A stretch of 64,000 nt of DNA, taken from positions 496,001 to 560,000 of the forward strand of contig CP129469.1 of the NCBI GenBank assembly GCA_030583665.1, in the 5' to 3' direction. Source of the DNA: Candidatus Jettenia sp. AMX2. Its GTDB lineage: Bacteria; Planctomycetota; Brocadiia; Brocadiales; Brocadiaceae. The notes under the pieces are model-generated. The model was not told the origin of the DNA. It worked only from the letters and a program-made list of their open reading frames with translations, and did no database searches. Every line of letters starts with the position of its first letter. Position 1 is the stretch's first letter. A program made the position numbers and the translations under genes. This document shows, one piece after another, positions 827 through 12,994 of the stretch.

Positions 827-1531
827 ATGACAGTCTTTAAATCATTATTTGGAGTAGAACCATCGGAGATTCAGAAGACGTGTGTCATTGTCCCTTTTCT
901 TTCTCAAGGTCTTTTGAATCAACTGGGCATTGAATCACTGAAAAAAGGGAAACTTTATTCAACAGCAAATACTGATACGTTTACTTTTATAAAAGCCGGT
1001 ATCGGCACATTACTTGCCGGCGATGCGACCTTATACCTTGAACAGACAAACTGTCAGGAGATCATCTTTCTCGGTGCCTGTGGTCTTGTACAGGAAACAG
1101 ATGCTTTAACTACCGGCAGCCTTGTTTGCCCGGAGGAATGTTTATCTTTCGAAAGTTTTACGGATGTTCTTTTGAGGCAAACGGATAAAATAACCGTCCA
1201 TTACCCCGATCCGGATTTGCTTCAGTCTTTTTTGAGCAGCAACCCGGATATCATAATCCACCGGGTTAAAGGAATGAGTATGGGGTCATTAAAGTGCGAA
1301 GAATTTTACAAAGGATATTTTATTGAAAAAGGCATTGAGGTAATCGATATGGAATGTTCCGCCTTTTTCAGTGCTGCACATTACATCCAAAAAAGGGCAA
1401 TAGCCATTTTGTATGTGACGGATATCATTGGTAAAAAACATTTTTTTGAGCCGTTAGAACCACAAGACAAATTACCCATTAACAATGCAATTCAAGATGC
1501 CTGCAAAGTAATACGCTCATTTTGTAAATAG
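827..1531 (+). CDS. Nucleoside phosphorylase/hydrolase superfamily protein
   Basis: A 234-residue protein with the phosphorylase-superfamily (PNP_UDP_1) pattern. There is a Gly-rich 'GIGTLLAGDA' segment near residue 60, a 'FLGACGLV' strand near residue 85 resembling the family's 'xGtcG' phosphate/base site, and 'IDMECSAFFSAA' near residue 175, corresponding to the ribose-binding 'MExxA' motif. Members cleave purine nucleosides, methylthioadenosine/SAH or futalosine. An aminofutalosine synthase gene (mqnE) lies 30 kb away, so futalosine hydrolase was considered, but nothing in the sequence specifically supports it. The 3' end overlaps the convergent next gene by 40 bases. Confidence 0.65.
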   Translation: MTVFKSLFGVEPSEIQKTCVIVPFLSQGLLNQLGIESLKKGKLYSTANTDTFTFIKAGIGTLLAGDATLYLEQTNCQEIIFLGACGLVQETDALTTGSLVCPEECLSFESFTDVLLRQTDKITVHYPDPDLLQSFLSSNPDIIIHRVKGMSMGSLKCEEFYKGYFIEKGIEVIDMECSAFFSAAHYIQKRAIAILYVTDIIGKKHFFEPLEPQDKLPINNAIQDACKVIRSFCK

Positions 1532-2631: not shown

Positions 2632-2856
2632 TTAATCCAACAAAGCCTTTAGCAGGCAATCCTTTGAATCGGTATAATACTGAATATTAATTTTTGTGAT
2701 CATGTCGTCTGACAAGTCATTCAGTTGCTTGCGGGCGTTTAAGGGGATGAGCAAGGTTGTGGCGACTTTTTCTATCGCCAATTCTGCCAGGTTAACAGCA
2801 TTATAAATGTTATCAACCGAACCGCTCAGATTCAGTTGCCCAATGATAACTAAACT
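2632..2856 (-). pseudogene. C-terminal fragment of Lon-like protease (BrxL-type)
   Basis: About 75 codons remain on the minus strand, ending at a TAA at 2632-2634. The translation includes 'IIGQLNLSGSV', 'NLAELAIEKVATTLLIPLNA' and the terminal 'YYTDSKDCLLKALLD'. This matches the end of Lon-type S16 proteolytic domains, where 'FYSDPxDAVxKAL' is usual. BrxL of BREX phage-defence systems has this kind of C-terminal domain, and that is the best guess. The N-terminal part is missing: the frame stops exactly where the inverted repeat of a broken insertion sequence starts. No other BREX gene is seen in the window. Confidence 0.6.
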
Positions 2857-3508
2857 GTGTTGGTTCAGCGTAAATTGGACAAACCCAAAACAAAAATAAG
2901 GACAAATTTGCCTTTGGCAAAAATTGAGTTTTTTTAGGCATGGGGGAAGCTCTGGATATCCAGTGATAATTTTTCATTGTAGGTGGAGGAGCCATAGGCT
3001 CCTCCAGACGGATATCCGTCACTACCCGATCGGCTATCCCTGGCAGGTTGCTTGTCTGCGTGCGGACGCGCACAGGCAGGCTCTCCAGCAGAGCCTGCTT
3101 CCGTTTCGCCGACTGGTAGTATTCCATCTTGTTCTGCCTTTGTCAATCCAAAAGAATCTTTGCTCATTCGCCTGATTCTTCTTTTCTCACGCGCCTCGTG
3201 CAACTTTCTATCACGTTCAGAAAAAATGACCTGTTCACGGCCTTCCAGTTTATCTTTTGGTGCAATATACCCCAAGGCATTATAAAGTCGTTTGTTATTG
3301 TAATAATCCACAAAACTTTCCACGATTCTTCTTGCGTCATCCACACTAAGGGGTGTCTTAGGACGAATACCTTCACTTTCTCCTGACTTGAATAACTCTT
3401 TCGTTTTTTTTCATATACATTTCCTCCTCTTTTTTCAATCTTTGTTATACTAACATTATATGCTATCTTTTTTGAGGAAATGGCCAATTCCGTCTGAAGC
3501 AAAACAAT
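2850..3508 (-). mobile_element. Internally deleted insertion sequence (IS3-like)
   Basis: Left and right ends are imperfect inverted repeats: 2850-2888 read forward and 3468-3508 read in reverse share TTCAG, AATTGG, CA and AAAA blocks in register. On the minus strand the element starts with a good ribosome site and the first residues of a typical orfA ('RKSYSSQEKVK'). It jumps near 3370 directly to the end of an integrase-type orfB, 'FVDYYNNKRLYNALGY'. Almost all of orfA and the DDE core are gone, so it cannot move on its own. It truncates the BrxL-like gene. Confidence 0.7.
2934..3344 (-). pseudogene. Transposase orfB C-terminal remnant
   Basis: The reading frame holds 'VESFVDYYNNKRLYNALGY', the conserved tail of rve-type IS3 transposases (integrase core C-terminus, 'xYNxxRxHxxLGY'). 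A basic 'REKRRIRRMSK' segment follows, then about 75 residues of low-complexity tail. The three catalytic acidic residues are missing, so it is inactive. The 5' part is fused out of frame to the first codons of orfA by the internal deletion. Confidence 0.65.
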
Positions 3509-3671
3509 ACAACCAACTAACCCGACTTTCGCAATTCGCACCTAAAAAAGGTTATTTTTGGACAAATATTACCCTGAAACCCTTGATTTTACAGGGGTCA
3601 ATTTTCAAAATGGCTTGTAGTGCCGACCTACCTATTGACGTCATTGCGGAAAACTGAGAAAAAGGGGAGCA

Positions 3672-6366: not shown

Positions 6367-6756
6367 TCAAAGCAGCTTATCCAGCGGTGCCCAGCCAGTC
6401 GGATGGGGAAATTGGTTCTTGTTGAAACCTTCCGCAGCAGGTGGACGTCCTTTGCGCGCAATAAAATCAGTCTGATAGGTATTCAGTAAAAATAGAGCAT
6501 CATTTTTGTGGAGTACCCAAACATTTCCCTCATCAACTACATAGATCACAACTATATTTACCACCTCGACTTGTCTTTTTTTCAACCATATGCCATTCCT
6601 CGACTTTAATCCCTTCACCTCTACCCGAATTTCTCGTCCGGGCTTGCATGCCAGCAGATCGCCATATTTGTAATTGCGGGGACGGCGTACTACTTTATAG
6701 CCACGAGATTTGATTTGTTCCTCTACCCTGAAAAGTGCTATTTCCTCTGCATCCAT
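6367..6756 (-). CDS. PD-(D/E)XK nuclease-like protein
   Basis: A 129-residue protein. An acidic helix ('EIALFRVEEQIKSRGYKVV') is followed by 'YKYGDLLA' and 'IRVEVKGL' at about residues 30-50. This spacing, Asp then Glu-x-Lys on adjacent strands, matches the PD-(D/E)XK restriction-endonuclease fold as in DUF3883-type domains. It probably binds or cuts DNA, but the substrate is unknown. It is the last gene of the sigma-54-driven operon, 61 bases after the 220-residue gene. The association with methylase-like, zinc-ribbon and signalling genes suggests a role as an effector. Confidence 0.55.
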   Translation of the reverse strand: MDAEEIALFRVEEQIKSRGYKVVRRPRNYKYGDLLACKPGREIRVEVKGLKSRNGIWLKKRQVEVVNIVVIYVVDEGNVWVLHKNDALFLLNTYQTDFIARKGRPPAAEGFNKNQFPHPTGWAPLDKLL

Positions 6757-6817
6757 AAGATGCTCCTTTCTAAAATTTCAACTATCTGTTTTTATGAATT
6801 TTATGTTTTCTATGATT

Positions 6818-7480
6818 CTATAGATGACCATAAGCCCACAACACCTTGTCGATTTTTCGTGGAGTCCAAAAGGATGTCCGAAACCATTCATTGTTCTCCG
6901 CAGCCTTTCTCCTCATGATATTAATAAGCATAGTGCCATTTTTGTGGCTAATATTAAAGGATTTACCATGAGGTTTCTTGCTTCCATTAATTCTTTTAGC
7001 TAATTCCTGTAATTGTAGCAGTTCAGATAATCCATTGACATTTGCCAATGCCAATATTAGAAATTCATCAACCGTGCCAAAATGTTCTGGATACATAAGC
7101 GCCAGAAGACCAGAAGCGCCTGCAATACCAAGCCCCTTAATGGATTTTGCAAGCTCAAGCCCTTTCCTGATATCGTTCTTATCAAAAGAAAGCAAGCGTT
7201 CCTTGATTTGATATAAATCAGTTAAACTATTTTTCTTCAAACTATTCCGGGTCGTTGCAAGCCGATTCGGCGCTGTGTATTTCCATGGGAAGTATTTATC
7301 GTATAGGAAAAAGTACCATTCTTTCGGAGTAAAATTGCAAATCATAGAGAGATCCAATGGGTCGAGTTCTGCATCGAGCCTGGCAACCGTACTGCTCTTG
7401 ATGTACTTATGATACTTATCTAAAGCATAATGCCATTCTGATTCTGATCTGCTGCGCCATAAAGAATTGGTGCTGTTCAT
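6818..7480 (-). CDS. Uncharacterised protein, helix-hairpin-helix-like core
   Basis: A 220-residue, mainly helical, basic protein with no signal peptide or membrane helix. The segment near residues 110-145, 'IKGLGIAGASGLLALMYPEH' followed by 'FGTVDEF', resembles the HhH-GPD pattern of DNA glycosylases (hairpin 'GlGxxxA' then an acidic Asp). The C-terminal 'FWTPRKIDKVLWAYG' is also like HhH enzymes that end a DNA-repair domain. It lies in the operon 78 bases after the zinc-ribbon gene. DNA binding is a reasonable inference; catalysis is not shown. Confidence 0.5.
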   Translation of the reverse strand: MNSTNSLWRSRSESEWHYALDKYHKYIKSSTVARLDAELDPLDLSMICNFTPKEWYFFLYDKYFPWKYTAPNRLATTRNSLKKNSLTDLYQIKERLLSFDKNDIRKGLELAKSIKGLGIAGASGLLALMYPEHFGTVDEFLILALANVNGLSELLQLQELAKRINGSKKPHGKSFNISHKNGTMLINIMRRKAAENNEWFRTSFWTPRKIDKVLWAYGHL

Positions 7481-7558
7481 GAACTATTCTCCTCAAATAG
7501 TACCTGTATTGACAAAGCATTAAGAGATTTTCCAGAAAAAGGTATATCATTTTTATTT

Positions 7559-7831
7559 TCAGGCCGATACAGAATTTTCTTTAATAAGATAATATTCACC
7601 GATACCTATGTACCGCATGAGTTCCCACAACTTTGGAATTATTTCACGAGTGGTCATGTCATCCCACTTGTCCTCTTCCTTTGACATTGATACACATTCG
7701 AGGAAAAGTTCGCCTATCATAGACATACATTGTTCACAAACCCTTATACCTGCTATTGGTTTTGATAAGATGTATGCCTCGTTATTACACCAATAACATT
7801 TGCCGTAATAATTGAATTTAGAAAAATCCAA
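7559..7831 (-). CDS. Small zinc-ribbon protein
   Basis: A 90-residue protein whose N-terminus carries 'CYWCNNEA' and 'VCEQCM', two CxxC pairs about 18 residues apart, typical of a structural zinc ribbon. The rest is an acidic helical tail with 'WDDMTTREIIPKLWELM'. It starts 2 bases downstream of the response-regulator stop codon, so it is translated from the same message. The function is unknown; it could be an adaptor for the neighbouring regulator or nuclease. Confidence 0.6.
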   Translation of the reverse strand: MDFSKFNYYGKCYWCNNEAYILSKPIAGIRVCEQCMSMIGELFLECVSMSKEEDKWDDMTTREIIPKLWELMRYIGIGEYYLIKENSVSA

Positions 7832-7833
7832 AG

Positions 7834-8706
7834 TTATCCTCCTCTCGTTTTTTTAAACCACAAAAGCAAATCAAGTAATGCGTAAGTTACAGCCTGCACG
7901 GTATATTTTGTTGGTGGATAATCGGGGTTTTCATAAGGAGTATGCGCTCCATTGTCACTTGTAACTTTATAAATGACTCCTGCAAATCTATCTATGATTG
8001 AATTTCTTTTTACATGTCCTTTATCAGTTAGATGCTTGTAAATTTTGGTAACATCTATTCCGTTTTCAATATATTCATTTGGAACTAACTCATAACTCTC
8101 TTTATTTAATGCAATATATATTTTTTCTTGTAAGCGACGTAGACAACTTAAATTATTTTTTATTATTGTAAAATCAGTACTGTTCATATTTTTTAAACAA
8201 TTTACAAGTTCTTCCTCTGCTTCGTTACCAATATAATCTTCGATTATCTCAAACGCATCTGAATATCTATCTAATATTTTTCCTCTTTCTGATTCTCGTG
8301 CTTTATTTATAAGGAATGAGAACATAGCTTCTTCGTCTTGTCCCTTTGAGTAAACTGCCCATGTGCCCTCATATAGTTTTTTCAGGTTTTTATACTCATC
8401 AGGCTCTCCGGTCAGAACAACAATTGGAATGTTTGGCAATTTTTTTCCAAAATATTTTAGCGCAGCAGTAATAAAGCTCTTATCTGGTACTTTTTGTTCT
8501 TTATTTTTCATACATATAACATCCAGTATGATTCCACAAATTGAGCGCCCTTCTTTGCTTTCAAGGAACATTTTTGCTTCTTCTAAATTAGAAACATGTT
8601 TCAGTATTATGCGACGTTTCTGGGCATCTCTGTTCAACTCTTCAACGTAATCTTTATCGTCATCTACTATCAATAAACGTAAAGGTCTGGTTTTATTTTT
8701 ACTCAT
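7834..8706 (-). CDS. Response regulator with C-terminal helical output domain
   Basis: A 290-residue protein. Residues 7-130 are a receiver domain with all key positions: the acidic triplet in 'IVDDDKDY', the phospho-acceptor Asp near residue 62 in 'GIILDVIC', Thr in 'VVLTGEP' and Lys in 'VYSKGQD'. There is no DNA-binding domain. The C-terminal half is helical and ends with 'GAHTPYENPDYPPTKYTVQA' then 'LLDLLLWF'. This resembles the C-terminal (Abi_C/HEPN-like) domain of abortive-infection proteins, a guess based on pattern only. Its ATG overlaps the stop of the kinase fusion gene (ATGA), so it is the natural phosphorylation partner. Confidence 0.75.
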   Translation of the reverse strand: MSKNKTRPLRLLIVDDDKDYVEELNRDAQKRRIILKHVSNLEEAKMFLESKEGRSICGIILDVICMKNKEQKVPDKSFITAALKYFGKKLPNIPIVVLTGEPDEYKNLKKLYEGTWAVYSKGQDEEAMFSFLINKARESERGKILDRYSDAFEIIEDYIGNEAEEELVNCLKNMNSTDFTIIKNNLSCLRRLQEKIYIALNKESYELVPNEYIENGIDVTKIYKHLTDKGHVKRNSIIDRFAGVIYKVTSDNGAHTPYENPDYPPTKYTVQAVTYALLDLLLWFKKTRGG

Positions 8707-11323
8707 TTTATAACCTTTCTAGGAAGTGTTATTCTAAAGTGAACAGAATTTTTATCTCGAATTATTTGAAAAGAACCATTATGTGCTTCAATTACTTTGC
8801 CAACCCATGCCCCTCCCAGTCCTTCACCATGGCTATCTTTACTTTTTATACCAAAAGACAAAAATTCCTTTTCATTTATATTCTCTGGAAATAAAATTCC
8901 ATTATTTTGTAATCAATGGTTATGTTTTCATCATTTCCGTCAATATCAAATTCCAACCTCGCATCACTAAAAGATTCATTAAAGGCATGGTATTCTGCAT
9001 TTATGATAATATTATTAATGGCTTCAACGAAATGCTCTTTATGAAGTTGAATATGCCCATCTACCATGCGGTTCACTTTTTTTACAATAAGTTTATAAGG
9101 TTTATTAGTATAAAGAGGTTTAATATCATTTATAAAAAGTTCATATACATCGATATCTTGAAAATCGTCTTTTCTTATTTCACGTGTTATAAGATCTCTT
9201 GCACTCTTAAGAATATTACCCACTTGGTTTAAGTTCTTGATTGATATATTTAATGCTTCGCCTACGGTTTCTTTTGTGCCGTCTAAGCGGGTTGATAAGA
9301 TTTCATCGATTAGTTGTCTTTCTTCCAAGAATTTAATTACGTCATTAATTGGGGATTTTGCGTTATAAATTTTAGGGTTTATATTATGAGCGAGATGACG
9401 AATAATACTAAATTCTGCTTCTTGTTTCTTATCAACAAGTTTCAAACGTTCCTTTAAGGTTTCTAATCTTGCATTTTCTGCTTCGAATAGTGTTGATTTG
9501 TATTGGTTTATAAAAATGCGCTGATCTTCTAAAGATTTAAAAATTGGAATAATAATTGTTTTTAGATCTGATAAAGTAATACGGGGGAATGACCACCTTG
9601 TATTCTTATGTCTTGCCGCGTGTTGTTTTCTAACTATTGGACTATAAAGTTGATAAAATAAGTATTCAAGATCAATGTTTTCTTTTGGAACAATTACCAC
9701 AATGTTTCTGCTTACTAATATCTCTGGATATTTTATATCGTCTTCAATGGACTCTTTCTTATATGGTAAATTTGGATCAAATATAGTTTGTCTCAAAGTA
9801 TCACCCAAAAGGGAGACAAGAATACATTTTTGTCGAATAATTTCGCCTTCAGATGCTGGTTTTCCAAAAGTAACATTATTGAAGTTAACGTAAGGATACA
9901 TTAAATTTGTTGAAAGATCTAATGTTGAGATAAAAGGCAATCCTTGTTTATCTTTTTCAGGACGTTTTTTTGTTTTCCCGCATTCGATTTTATACATATC
10001 TTTAAGCGGAATACCTGTTTCATCCTTTCTTAGTTTTTTTATTTCACTTGGGGTGGTGCCAACATAACAATTTGGAGATAAATTAAAATTATTTTGCTGT
10101 ATTTCTTCGTAAGTAACAATTTCTTCATCTTTAGTCCTTGTTTCAAAATTATTATAAGCAGTTACTATTCTCTCAATTTCTTCATGAGATATAGAAACCA
10201 ATCCATCTCTTATAAAAGGGGAGACTTTTGTATATATAACCTTATGTTTTCTGTCAATTGATTTATTTTTATTTATTATGAGAAGATTTAGATTGGTGTT
10301 CAAAGAAGGATAAAGTTCTAATGGCAATTGAATTACGGATTCAATGTAGTCATTTTTGAAATTAAGTTCCTTTAAAAATTTATCTGTCCTCATATTGGAA
10401 AGTTGATTTTGAGGAAGTAATATACCCATCCGACCATTATCAATTAGTCTAGAATTATAAATGTTCTTAAACTTAATTATTTTGTAAATATAGTCATCGG
10501 AATTCATATAATAATCATCAAATAGATATCTTAAAACTAAAACATCAGCTTTGTTTTCATTAAAAAAACTTCCTTTTGCGGCTGAATTGAAAAGAACGCC
10601 AGCCATAGCAAGTCTTAACTTTGCCAGTCCCAATATCTCCTTATCTTCCTCATAAATGTCTATATTATTTGATAAATTGTATTGCTCGAATTTGTTAGGC
10701 CACCCATGATTTTCATATATGTGAGTTATGGCAGCAATAAGGATATCACCGAAACCACAATGAGGATTGTATAGCTTTTCGGAAATTTGCGGATTTAATA
10801 GTTTTACTATCAATTTGCATAATGAATTTGGTATATATGATGTTTTACTTCTAATTATTCCTGTACTTTCTGCATGTTGCTCAAAAAATGCAGAAACAAT
10901 TTCCACAAATTCTTTGAGAGAAAAATTATTGAGAGACAAATCTAAAGAATCGAATGTGTTTAATAATTCCTTTTGTGTTAATGGCGAAATATTTTGCTGA
11001 TATCTTTGTATATCAAGCGCATCAGCAATATCTCCCAACCCTTTATTAGCAGATGAAATCTCTCTGAAATTTTTATCAATTAGTTTAAACAATTGCTCAG
11101 ATGAGAAATCCAGGCAAGACCATCTGTAGCTTTCAGGAATCGTAATTATTGATTTGTCAGATGCTCCATTTTGCTCAAGAATATCATTAAAACGTTTATA
11201 TGCTATGAGAACAAAAACAATTTTAAATGAATCAAAGTGACTTAAGGTACTCGATGAGTTGTGGAGTATTTCTATGGCTTCTGAGATTTTATTGTTAAAT
11301 ACCTGTGTTTTATTATTTTTCAC
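8703..11323 (-). CDS. HsdM/HsdS-like protein fused to histidine kinase (frameshift near end)
   Basis: Read as one gene of about 873 residues. Residues 1-420 follow the type I methylase subunit (HsdM): a helical N-terminus, then 'NPHCGFGDILIAA' at about 185 where HsdM has the AdoMet-binding 'DPACGTGGFL'. The catalytic NPPF/Y motif is absent; 'VLRYLFDD' stands in its region. Residues 440-620 look like a type I specificity (HsdS) target-recognition domain, followed by a coiled coil. Residues 635-873 are a histidine kinase: H-box 'IIRHLAHNINP', N-box 'EAINNIIINAEYHAF', then NNG and 'HGEGLGGAW' (G2 box). The original frame stops at 8876. Adding one A to the A4 run at 8905-8908 restores the last 65 residues, ending in ATGA with the next gene. 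Confidence 0.75.
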
Positions 11324-11379: not shown

Positions 11380-11395
11380 AGCAAGGACAATGCCA
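11380..11395 (-). promoter_or_regulatory. Sigma-54 (-24/-12) promoter
   Basis: On the minus strand the sequence reads 'TGGCATTGTCCTTGCT', with GG and GC 10 bases apart, against the consensus TGGCACG-N4-TTGCW: a near-perfect RpoN site. Transcription would begin near 11369, about 46 bases ahead of the kinase fusion start at 11323. The gene immediately upstream is a sigma-54 activator, which strengthens the call. Confidence 0.85.
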
Positions 11396-11471
11396 AAATA
11401 TTCTAGTTTGTCTATCTTCTTTGATTACAAGAAGTTACAAATATTACACCAAAAATATATATCTGTGAAGT

Positions 11472-11506
11472 TTCAACTTAAGTTTAATTTTATTCAACTC
11501 AGGTTT
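11472..11506. promoter_or_regulatory. Tandem upstream activator sites
   Basis: Two copies of 'TTCAACTYARGTTT' (11472-11485 and 11493-11506), each an imperfect palindrome around AACTYARGTT, begin exactly 21 bases apart, or two helical turns. They lie about 80-110 bases upstream of the -24 element, where enhancer-binding proteins normally bind. They sit just after the stop codon of the CARF activator gene, its likely ligand. Confidence 0.65.
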
Positions 11507-11509
11507 AAA

Positions 11510-12994
11510 TTATGGATTGCGGAGAAACTTGTGTACTGCCTGAGGTGTTATTCCCAAGAGTTTTGCGGCTTTGCTTTGATTCCCTTCTGCTAATTCCAAT
11601 GCTCTCAATATCATTTGTTTTCGAACACTCGATAAAAAATCCTCTAAGGAGAAATCTGATGATGGTTCTGGCAACGTTGCTAAAGGATCAGACTTTATTA
11701 ATGGTTCTGAAATCAACAAATCATCTGCTTCCAGCACATCACGTCTTGCCAATCTTGCTGACCGCTCAATTACATTCTCAAGATCTCGTACATTACCGGG
11801 CCAGGAATGTTCTTGCAATCTTATCAATGCGCCTGGTGACAATCTTCTCGGTCTTTTAAGTGCGGTATTAATTCGGTCAAGTACATAAAGGGCAATTTTA
11901 GGAATATCACTTTTTCTTTCCCTCAAGGAAGGTAAACGAATTTCTCCAATATTTAAACGGTAATAAAGGTCCTCTCGAAAATGCCCTTTTTTTATTGCCT
12001 TTATAAGATCTTTGTTTGTGGCGGCAATAATGCGAACATTTACTTTATGTGATTTTTTAGCTCCAACAGGTTCTACGATCCCATCTTGTAAAACACGGAG
12101 CAACTTAGCTTGCATTGATAAAGGGAGTTCCCCTAACTCGTCAAGAAATAAGGTCCCACCATCAGCCTGATCAAATTTGCCAAACTGATCATTTATTGCA
12201 CCGGTAAAAGTGCCTTTTTTATGACCGAACAAGATGCTTTCAACAAGATTTTCCGGAATAGCAGCACAGTTTATTGGTATGAACAGATCTGATGGTCTGC
12301 CACTAAGAAGGTGTACAAATTTTGCAAACATCTCTTTACCGGTACCCGTTTCTCCAAGAATAAGTATGGGTATGTTTGATTGTGCCAGTGCGGTAGCCGT
12401 TTCTATAGACTTATAAATGCTTGGATGATCTCCGACTATCCCCAATTTTTTAATTACCGCAGAAACATCCAAAGAAGCATCGTCAGTTTTAACATTGTAA
12501 ATATTAGCTCTCACAATGGGGAAGTCAGGCAGAGTTAAGTCTATTTCTGAAACTATCGGGTGTTCTTTACTAACAAATTTAGGAGGACGTACATGTAAAA
12601 TACGGGCAGGAATTTCTCCGCTTGCCACAAGCAAAACCCAACAGGCGTGCATTTGGGGCGTTCCCGAAGCTGTAGCTACAAAATAATGTGCGTCCTGGAA
12701 TTTATCAAAAATCGTCCTGGTATGGTGGCGCAAACCTTTCAGAATCGCAATATAGTTGGTTGGGTCATTGAGTAATAATTGTCGATTTTCTATACCCACA
12801 TTGGGATATAATTTTTTTATAAATCCCTCTGTAGCCAAAGTGTTTTTTTCTGTATTTGGTGTGGTAAAAAGAATAACGTGGTTAAAGGTTTTTGCATTTA
12901 AAAGGGAAAGGATTGGACCAGGTTGCTCTTCTTCGCCAATGAGCCCTTTTGCATAAGGGTCATGGAAACCGGTAAATGTAAGTAGTATATTCAT
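11510..12994 (-). CDS. RtcR-like CARF-AAA+ sigma-54 activator
   Basis: A 494-residue enhancer-binding protein. Residues 1-150 form a CARF-like ligand domain similar to that of RtcR ('YFVATASGTPQMHACWVLL', then 'PARILHVRPP'; RtcR has 'HITTGTHVAQICWFLL'). Residues 190-420 are the sigma-54 AAA+ ATPase: Walker A 'GETGTGKE' near 213, the sigma-54 contact loop as GTFTGA (usually GAFTGA) near 261, and Walker B 'LFLDELGE' near 283. Residues 465-494 are a Fis-type helix-turn-helix. RtcR controls the rtcBA RNA-repair genes after binding an RNA-derived ligand. Here no rtcBA follows; instead an RpoN promoter and the kinase-fusion operon lie downstream in the same direction. Confidence 0.85.
   Translation of the reverse strand: MNILLTFTGFHDPYAKGLIGEEEQPGPILSLLNAKTFNHVILFTTPNTEKNTLATEGFIKKLYPNVGIENRQLLLNDPTNYIAILKGLRHHTRTIFDKFQDAHYFVATASGTPQMHACWVLLVASGEIPARILHVRPPKFVSKEHPIVSEIDLTLPDFPIVRANIYNVKTDDASLDVSAVIKKLGIVGDHPSIYKSIETATALAQSNIPILILGETGTGKEMFAKFVHLLSGRPSDLFIPINCAAIPENLVESILFGHKKGTFTGAINDQFGKFDQADGGTLFLDELGELPLSMQAKLLRVLQDGIVEPVGAKKSHKVNVRIIAATNKDLIKAIKKGHFREDLYYRLNIGEIRLPSLRERKSDIPKIALYVLDRINTALKRPRRLSPGALIRLQEHSWPGNVRDLENVIERSARLARRDVLEADDLLISEPLIKSDPLATLPEPSSDFSLEDFLSSVRKQMILRALELAEGNQSKAAKLLGITPQAVHKFLRNP

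What the first reader, a model, noticed from the sequence alone, without database searches (positions are those of the whole stretch)
8703..11323. A type I methylase-like and specificity-like protein fused to a histidine kinase
One chain carries an HsdM-like body, an HsdS-like recognition domain, a coiled coil and a kinase with H-, N- and G-boxes. The AdoMet motif is degenerate (NPHCGFGD rather than DPACGTGG) and the NPPF catalytic motif is not found. So the protein probably recognises, rather than methylates, a DNA sequence and reports it through phosphorylation to the response regulator that overlaps it. A DNA-sequence or DNA-modification sensor of this kind would be novel to my knowledge.
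Basis: partly seen in the sequence, partly recalled or inferred. Interest (0 to 1): 0.82.

Follow-up and report, generated by a model that had tools for sequence, protein, structure and literature searches.

The report
Methylase-fused histidine kinase with response regulator
The window carries a divergent, apparently frameshifted copy of a protein family in which a restriction-system DNA-recognition machine is fused to a signalling kinase and paired with a response regulator, suggesting that some bacteria use a retired DNA methylase as the antenna of a signalling system, often beside restriction genes.

Summary
The fusion is real, but on the minus strand. The open frame is 815 aa (8876-11323), not 873: a one-base frameshift near 8905 puts the kinase G-boxes in another frame, which ends overlapping the response regulator. 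The model gives an HsdM body, one HsdS-like domain, a coiled coil running into the kinase DHp, and part of a HATPase. It is not unique: I found 19 further near-full-length relatives, all in Bacteroidota, each with the regulator downstream wherever the contig continues, usually between a WYL regulator and a type I restriction operon. Kinase boxes are conserved in 20/20 fusions and the receiver phospho-site in 19/19; both methyltransferase motifs are canonical in only 1 of 21, against 10 of 10 neighbouring true HsdM. Kinase and regulator trees agree. In the window a CARF/RtcR-like activator and a conserved sigma-54-like promoter lie upstream. Best reading: a two-component system whose sensor is a methylase-specificity module, probably reading DNA sequence or modification (or anti-restriction DNA mimics) to control restriction. 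Ligand and output are inferred. The window copy is probably recently broken, or the break is a sequencing error; its only close relative is truncated.

The parts
8876..11323 (-). HsdM-HsdS-histidine kinase fusion ('MS-kinase'), open frame of 815 aa, GTG start, ends early at a frameshift
10034..11323 (-). HsdM-like body (residues 1-430)
   Evidence: N6_Mtase E=2.4e-23; VIA-align Z=30.5, rmsd 4.1, 402 residues to PacII M1, 7vru_A
10745..10768 (-). degenerate AdoMet motif I, NPHCGFGD (residues 186-193)
   Evidence: alignment with fusions and true HsdM; DPFCGFGD in G106
10520..10534 (-). lost catalytic motif IV: LRYLF in place of [AS]NPPF (about residues 264-268)
   Evidence: KPPF in G106
9524..10024 (-). 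HsdS-like target-recognition domain, one copy (residues 434-600)
9185..9532 (-). coiled coil continuous with DHp helices; conserved His646 (codon 9386-9388)
   Evidence: AF2 helices 598-668 and 687-713; His conserved in 20/20 fusions
8907..9160 (-). first part of HATPase with N-box (INNIIINAEYHAF)
8905..8908 (-). A-run at which the reading frame shifts by one base
8703..8909 (-). out-of-frame end of the kinase with G1 (NNG) and G2 (GEGLGG) boxes; stop overlaps the regulator start (ATGA)
7834..8706 (-). cognate response regulator: REC (D15, D16, D62, T99, K121) plus helical C-terminal domain of unknown fold, 290 aa
   Evidence: AF2 model, VIA Z=15.9 to ArcA REC; D16, D62, T/S99, K121 in 19/19
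7559..7831 (-). 90-aa protein with CxxC...CxxC (possible zinc ribbon), TTG start, next in the run
   Evidence: ClpX-like, E=0.07, weak
6818..7480 (-). 220-aa protein of unknown family, same strand
6367..6756 (-). 129-aa possible PD-(D/E)xK nuclease-like protein
   Evidence: weak Hjc E=0.015 and NOV_C E=0.02, both below cut-off
11380..11396 (-). sigma-54 -24/-12 promoter-like site TTGGCATTGTCCTTGCT, 56 bases before the GTG start
   Evidence: 11 of 13 positions; 3 of 3000 shuffles reach this; conserved in G106
11472..11508 (-). two direct repeats TTAAACYTRAGTTGAA (11493-11508, 11472-11487), 21 bp apart: candidate activator sites
   Evidence: present in window and G106
11510..12994 (-). CARF-AAA-HTH sigma-54 activator, RtcR-like, upstream regulator
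   Evidence: PADLOC RtcR_PspF2 E=5.8e-135; Pfam RtcR E=3e-9

Best explanation
The gene pair is a two-component signalling system whose sensor is a converted type I methyltransferase-specificity (M-S) module. Shown by sequence or model: one chain holds an HsdM fold, one HsdS-like recognition domain, a helix that runs straight into a kinase DHp, and a GHKL ATPase (in the window split by a frameshift); the next gene is a co-inherited response regulator with a complete phospho-acceptor site; relatives sit mostly inside type I restriction operons. Inferred: dimers of the fusion clamp DNA like an M2S complex (or bind anti-restriction DNA mimics of the Ocr/ArdA kind) and read a target sequence or its methylation state; the clamp state is passed along the S-type coiled coil to the DHp; the kinase phosphorylates Asp62 of the regulator; the regulator then adjusts the linked restriction or nuclease genes. 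In the window, production of the pair is probably switched on by the upstream CARF/RtcR-like activator at a sigma-54 promoter. The window copy itself is probably recently disabled by a frameshift in the ATPase, unless that base is a sequencing error.
For: M-S fold: VIA Z=30.5 to PacII M1 (402 aa, rmsd 4.1) and a Foldseek match spanning M and S of the V. vulnificus MTase bound to Ocr, E=1.8e-18. Kinase: HATPase_c in relatives, E down to 7.5e-8, and in the read-through window tail, E=3.7e-7; H, N, G1 and G2 boxes in 20/20 fusions. Regulator: REC fold, phospho-site residues in 19/19, trees of kinase and regulator congruent (Mantel r=0.69, 0/5000 permutations), window in one clade with L042, L043 and L048 in both (support 0.999 and 0.990). 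Methylation given up: both motifs canonical in 1 of 21 fusions against 10 of 10 neighbouring HsdM; motif IV region 30% identical to G106 against about 85% over residues 1-180. Restriction link: WYL - fusion - regulator - hsdM/S/R order, McrB next in L064. Sigma-54 site and repeats.
Against: No member has been tested in the laboratory, so the ligand is unknown. L068 5346-8000 keeps both methyltransferase motifs, and several members keep NPPF, so some may still methylate. The kinase G1 box has N in place of the usual D in all members, though the solved kinases ThkA and VanS align there with NSG and NTG. The regulator's C-terminal domain matches nothing known in the window. The window copy is frameshifted and the only close relative (G106) is cut at about residue 577.
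Confidence: 0.6

Rival explanations
1. The M-S part does not read modification but is a decoy or guard: it mimics the true M-S complex and binds phage anti-restriction proteins (Ocr, ArdA), so the kinase fires when a phage tries to disarm restriction.
For: The best whole M-S match is an MTase bound to Ocr; the fusions sit inside type I operons; catalysis is dispensable for such a role.
Against: A fold match to an Ocr-bound structure reflects which structures were solved. The recognition domain is retained, which a guard may not need. No test of binding was possible.
Confidence: 0.2
2. The protein is a still-active (or cofactor-sensing) methyltransferase whose kinase part reports AdoMet level or methylation turnover instead of DNA sequence.
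For: Relatives L042 and L043 keep canonical motif I (DPVAGSGG, DPVAGTGG); L068 5346-8000 keeps both motifs.
Against: Most members have a changed motif I, and in L041 and L044 Pfam finds only the second half of the methylase domain. Motif IV is changed in the window, G106, L042, L043, L048 and others.
Confidence: 0.12
3. In the window it is just a decaying pseudogene with no present function.
For: Frameshift in the ATPase; G106 copy truncated; rare in the phylum.
Against: The same architecture is conserved across Bacteroidota. dN/dS of 0.32 against G106 and 93% identity of the promoter region, above the 78% of the coding part, argue for past function in this genus. The 68 codons behind the frameshift keep all boxes without a stop. 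This rival may hold for the window copy alone, not for the family.
Confidence: 0.3

Closest known systems
Type I restriction-modification methyltransferase (HsdM + HsdS)
   Same: HsdM N-terminal helical domain and N6_Mtase fold, HsdS-type recognition domain and coiled coil
   Different: M and S in one chain with a single recognition domain, motif I/IV mostly lost, C-terminal histidine kinase, dedicated response regulator
Classical two-component systems (HisKA/HATPase kinase + REC regulator)
   Same: H, N, G1 and G2 boxes, REC with Asp62, overlapping genes
   Different: Cytosolic M-S module as the sensor; Asn instead of Asp in G1; regulator without a known DNA-binding output in the window
McrBC loci with methyltransferases and two-component genes (NxD GTPase branch noted in the CoCoNuT paper, PMC11090510)
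   Same: Restriction genes beside methyltransferase and two-component genes; RtcR/CARF-led superoperons; L064 shows the fusion next to McrB
   Different: That paper only mentions the association and defers it; no M-S-kinase fusion is described in the section read, and the L064 GTPase has a canonical NTAD motif
MADS (methylation-associated defence system)
   Same: mad2 methyltransferase and mad5 specificity models score with relatives; weak MADS2 score for the window protein
   Different: The score is far below the curated cut-off (30 bits against 720) and reflects shared HsdM/HsdS ancestry; no histidine kinase is named in these hits
Detocs (defence two-component system; recalled from memory, a lead only)
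   Same: Kinase plus receiver proteins in a defence setting
   Different: No M-S sensor known to me; the window regulator shows no phosphorylase effector domain

Membership tests
Type I restriction-modification methyltransferase | HsdM fold | tested here: met
   Pfam N6_Mtase E=2.4e-23; Z=30.5 to PacII M1
Type I restriction-modification methyltransferase | intact AdoMet motif I and catalytic NPP[FYW] | tested here: not met
   NPHCGFGD and LRYLF in the window
Type I restriction-modification methyltransferase | separate HsdS with two recognition domains and HsdR in the operon | tested here: not met
   one recognition domain inside the fusion; no hsdR among the adjacent genes of the window
Two-component system | histidine kinase with H, N, G boxes in one chain | tested here: inconclusive
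   all boxes present but split by a frameshift in the window; in one frame in the complete relatives
Two-component system | cognate receiver with acidic pocket, phospho-Asp, T/S and K | tested here: met
   D15, D16, D62, T99, K121; REC fold Z=15.9
Two-component system | autophosphorylation and phosphotransfer | not testable with these tools
   biochemistry needed
MS-kinase/REC family defined here | HsdM-HsdS-kinase fusion with the regulator gene next to it, co-inherited | tested here: met
   window groups with L042, L043, L048 in both trees
MS-kinase/REC family defined here | type I restriction operon directly downstream (usual, not universal) | tested here: not met
   true of about 11 Bacteroidota loci, not of the window nor of L042 and L048
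MADS | curated MADS2 score | tested here: not met
   30 bits against cut-off 720

The most novel reading that the evidence does not exclude
A widespread but undescribed class of two-component systems in which a catalytically retired type I methyltransferase-specificity complex reads the sequence or methylation state of DNA and signals by phosphorelay to control restriction: an epigenetic sensor kinase.
Probability: 0.4. Interest if true: 0.9.

Novelty: new variant of a known kind. Interest (0 to 1): 0.75.

Why it matters
No histidine kinase that senses a DNA sequence or its methylation directly is known to me. If the inferred function holds, restriction systems would have a built-in gauge of self-methylation or of phage attack wired to a phosphorelay. 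That would bear on an open question: how new type I systems control restriction before the genome is methylated, and how they notice phage inhibitors. The module is compact, occurs in culturable Bacteroidota and is directly testable in vitro.

Tried and rejected
A close-relative scan of genome contigs with the window protein found nothing; viral contigs gave no relative; phage records gave none. Plasmid searches with the N-terminal half only returned ordinary HsdM. The 220-aa protein was compared with a similar-looking protein near L048 and the link was not supported (E=0.023 for a single comparison). A claim that no member keeps both methyltransferase motifs was dropped when L068 5346-8000 turned up. 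A HEPN-like reading of the regulator's C-terminal domain was considered from the pattern R-x3-E...SH, but no tool supported it. Programmed -1 frameshifting was considered for the break and judged unlikely: I see no canonical slippery heptamer. No matching description was found in ten literature searches; most subscription journals and all bioRxiv-only preprints are outside that library.

Full report
Observation. The gene lies on the minus strand. The frame from GTG at 11323 runs 815 codons to TAA at 8876-8878. The range in the finding goes on to 8703 and crosses several stops in that frame. In another frame, 8706-8909 reads NNGILFPEN...GEGLGGAWVGKVIEAHNG...PRKVIK, the missing G1 and G2 boxes of a GHKL ATPase, and ends in a stop that overlaps the ATG of the regulator by four bases. 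The break sits in an A-run at 8905-8908 and looks like the loss of one base. It may be real or a sequencing error: the assembly is 99.99% complete by the tool's own estimate, so frame errors are not rampant, but reads were not available. The 68 codons behind the break contain no stop and keep all boxes, so the break is recent or not real.

Anatomy. Pfam gives N6_Mtase at 161-425 (E=2.4e-23); PADLOC gives type I methyltransferase and specificity models. The AlphaFold2 model (mean pLDDT 67, 12 sequences, so moderate confidence) shows an HsdM body, a recognition domain, a helix from 598 to 668 that passes from the S-type coiled coil into the kinase DHp, a second DHp helix 687-713 and the first part of a HATPase. 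VIA-align places residues 3-427 on PacII M1 (Z=30.5, rmsd 4.1, 402 residues); Foldseek spans M and S on the Vibrio vulnificus MTase bound to Ocr (E=1.8e-18; VIA Z=29.5 but rmsd 24, so only the domain order is comparable). With the tail read through as X, HATPase_c scores E=3.7e-7 and the solved kinases ThkA, KdpD and VanS match weakly. The regulator (290 aa) is a REC domain (Z=15.9 to ArcA) with a helical C-terminal part of unknown fold.

A family. The kinase tail pulled out a Myroides odoratimimus plasmid protein annotated only as 'N-6 DNA methylase'. It has N6_Mtase (E=1e-29), a weak Methylase_S and HATPase_c (E=9.7e-7), and it is followed by a 388-aa receiver protein that aligns with the window regulator over about 300 residues. 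A signature of its motif I (YNPFAG[LIM]AS[FY]) found 11 loci in a collection of 84,980 species, all in Bacteroidota and all of them this family (three are cut by the locus end before the kinase). A profile of nine fusions run over 296 Bacteroidota genomes found 12 genomes with full-length fusions. In 392 Planctomycetota genomes only the window's genome and its one genus relative (G106) have it. In all I hold 20 near-full-length fusions, counting the window read through its frameshift, plus partial ones.

Neighbourhood. In Bacteroidota the usual order is WYL-HTH regulator, fusion, receiver protein, hsdM, hsdS, hsdR. WYL was confirmed by Pfam in L012 and L067 and elsewhere rests on near-identical N-termini. 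An hsdM-type gene directly follows the receiver protein in about 11 loci. In L064 the regulator carries a Schlafen AlbA_2 domain (E=6.4e-15) and the next gene is McrB-like. L065 has a NACHT/STAND protein and a type I system next to the fusion. L070 has a divergent CARF-AAA-HTH activator, PADLOC RtcR_PspF2 E=4.3e-134, the same class as the activator upstream of the window fusion (E=5.8e-135). So the controlling gene alternates between WYL and CARF/RtcR types.

What is conserved. In one alignment of 21 fusions and 10 neighbouring HsdM proteins, the kinase His, the N-box NA, the G1 N-x-G and the G2 G-x-G are present in 20/20 fusions that reach that far. REC residues D16, D62, T/S99 and K121 are present in 19/19 regulators. 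Taking D-P-x-x-G as canonical motif I and NPP[FYW] as canonical motif IV, both are present in one fusion of 21, L068 5346-8000 (DPTCGNG, NPPF), and in all 10 HsdM proteins. The other fusions have NPFAGLAS with NPPF, TPPF or SPPI, or DPVAGSGG with DLPI, or neither. (Three HsdM proteins read DPSLGTAG or DPSVGTAG, so the exact glycine pattern of motif I is not decisive.) Selection thus keeps the kinase and lets the methylation site go. Kinase and regulator trees agree (r=0.69, 0 of 5000 permutations) and put the window with L042, L043 and L048 in both.

The window lineage. Against G106 the fusion has dN/dS of 0.19/0.60, the RtcR-like neighbour 0.05/0.41. Residues 1-180 are about 85% identical, residues 241-360 only 45%, and the motif IV stretch 30% (KPPF in G106, RYLF here). 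G106's copy ends at residue 579 and the DNA beyond does not match, so both copies of the genus are damaged at the kinase end. Between the CARF activator and the fusion lies TTGGCATTGTCCTTGCT (11380-11396), 11 of 13 positions of the sigma-54 consensus at the right spacing, reached by 3 of 3000 shuffles; two direct repeats 21 bp apart lie upstream; the whole 186 bp are 93% identical to G106 against 78% for the coding part. That supports activation of the fusion by the CARF protein, by analogy with RtcR; its ligand is unknown.

Mechanism. Shown: architecture, pairing, conservation pattern, restriction context. Inferred from the type I enzymes: DNA clamping by the M-S part and reading of target or methylation; signal through the coiled coil; phosphotransfer to Asp62; regulation of restriction genes or direct action of the receiver protein. 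A guard role against DNA-mimic inhibitors is the main alternative for the input.

Known or new. The CoCoNuT paper notes, without detail, McrBC branches with methyltransferases and two-component genes (PMC11090510) and RtcR-led superoperons with restriction genes. I found no description of an M-S-kinase fusion in the papers searched. I therefore call it a new variant of two-component systems with a new kind of sensor.

Noticed in passing
L003/L071 (G106:C7) 1-1862: The same-genus copy of the fusion ends at residue 579 and the following DNA is unrelated to the window; the S-end, kinase and regulator were not found in that genome.
   Followed up: partly
L064 2438-3382: A receiver domain fused to a Schlafen AlbA_2 domain (E=6.4e-15), followed by an McrB-like GTPase, next to a methylase-kinase fusion.
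   Followed up: partly
L068 5346-8000: A methylase-kinase fusion with both methyltransferase motifs intact (DPTCGNG, NPPF), possibly an active methylase with a kinase; the same genome (G396) holds a second, degenerate fusion.
   Followed up: partly
L070 15789-17237: CARF-AAA-HTH (RtcR-like) activator divergent from a methylase-kinase operon in Bacteroidota, in place of the WYL regulator seen in other loci.
   Followed up: partly
window 827-1531: Stand-alone phosphorylase-superfamily protein (PNP_UDP_1, E=4.9e-12), about 5 kb from the module, no receiver domain.
   Followed up: no
window 2813-3541: Overlapping small frames that look like a broken transposase gene.
   Followed up: no
window 6367-7831: Three small genes directly behind the regulator (possible zinc ribbon, unknown 220-aa protein, weak nuclease-like 129-aa protein): candidate effectors, not identified.
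   Followed up: partly
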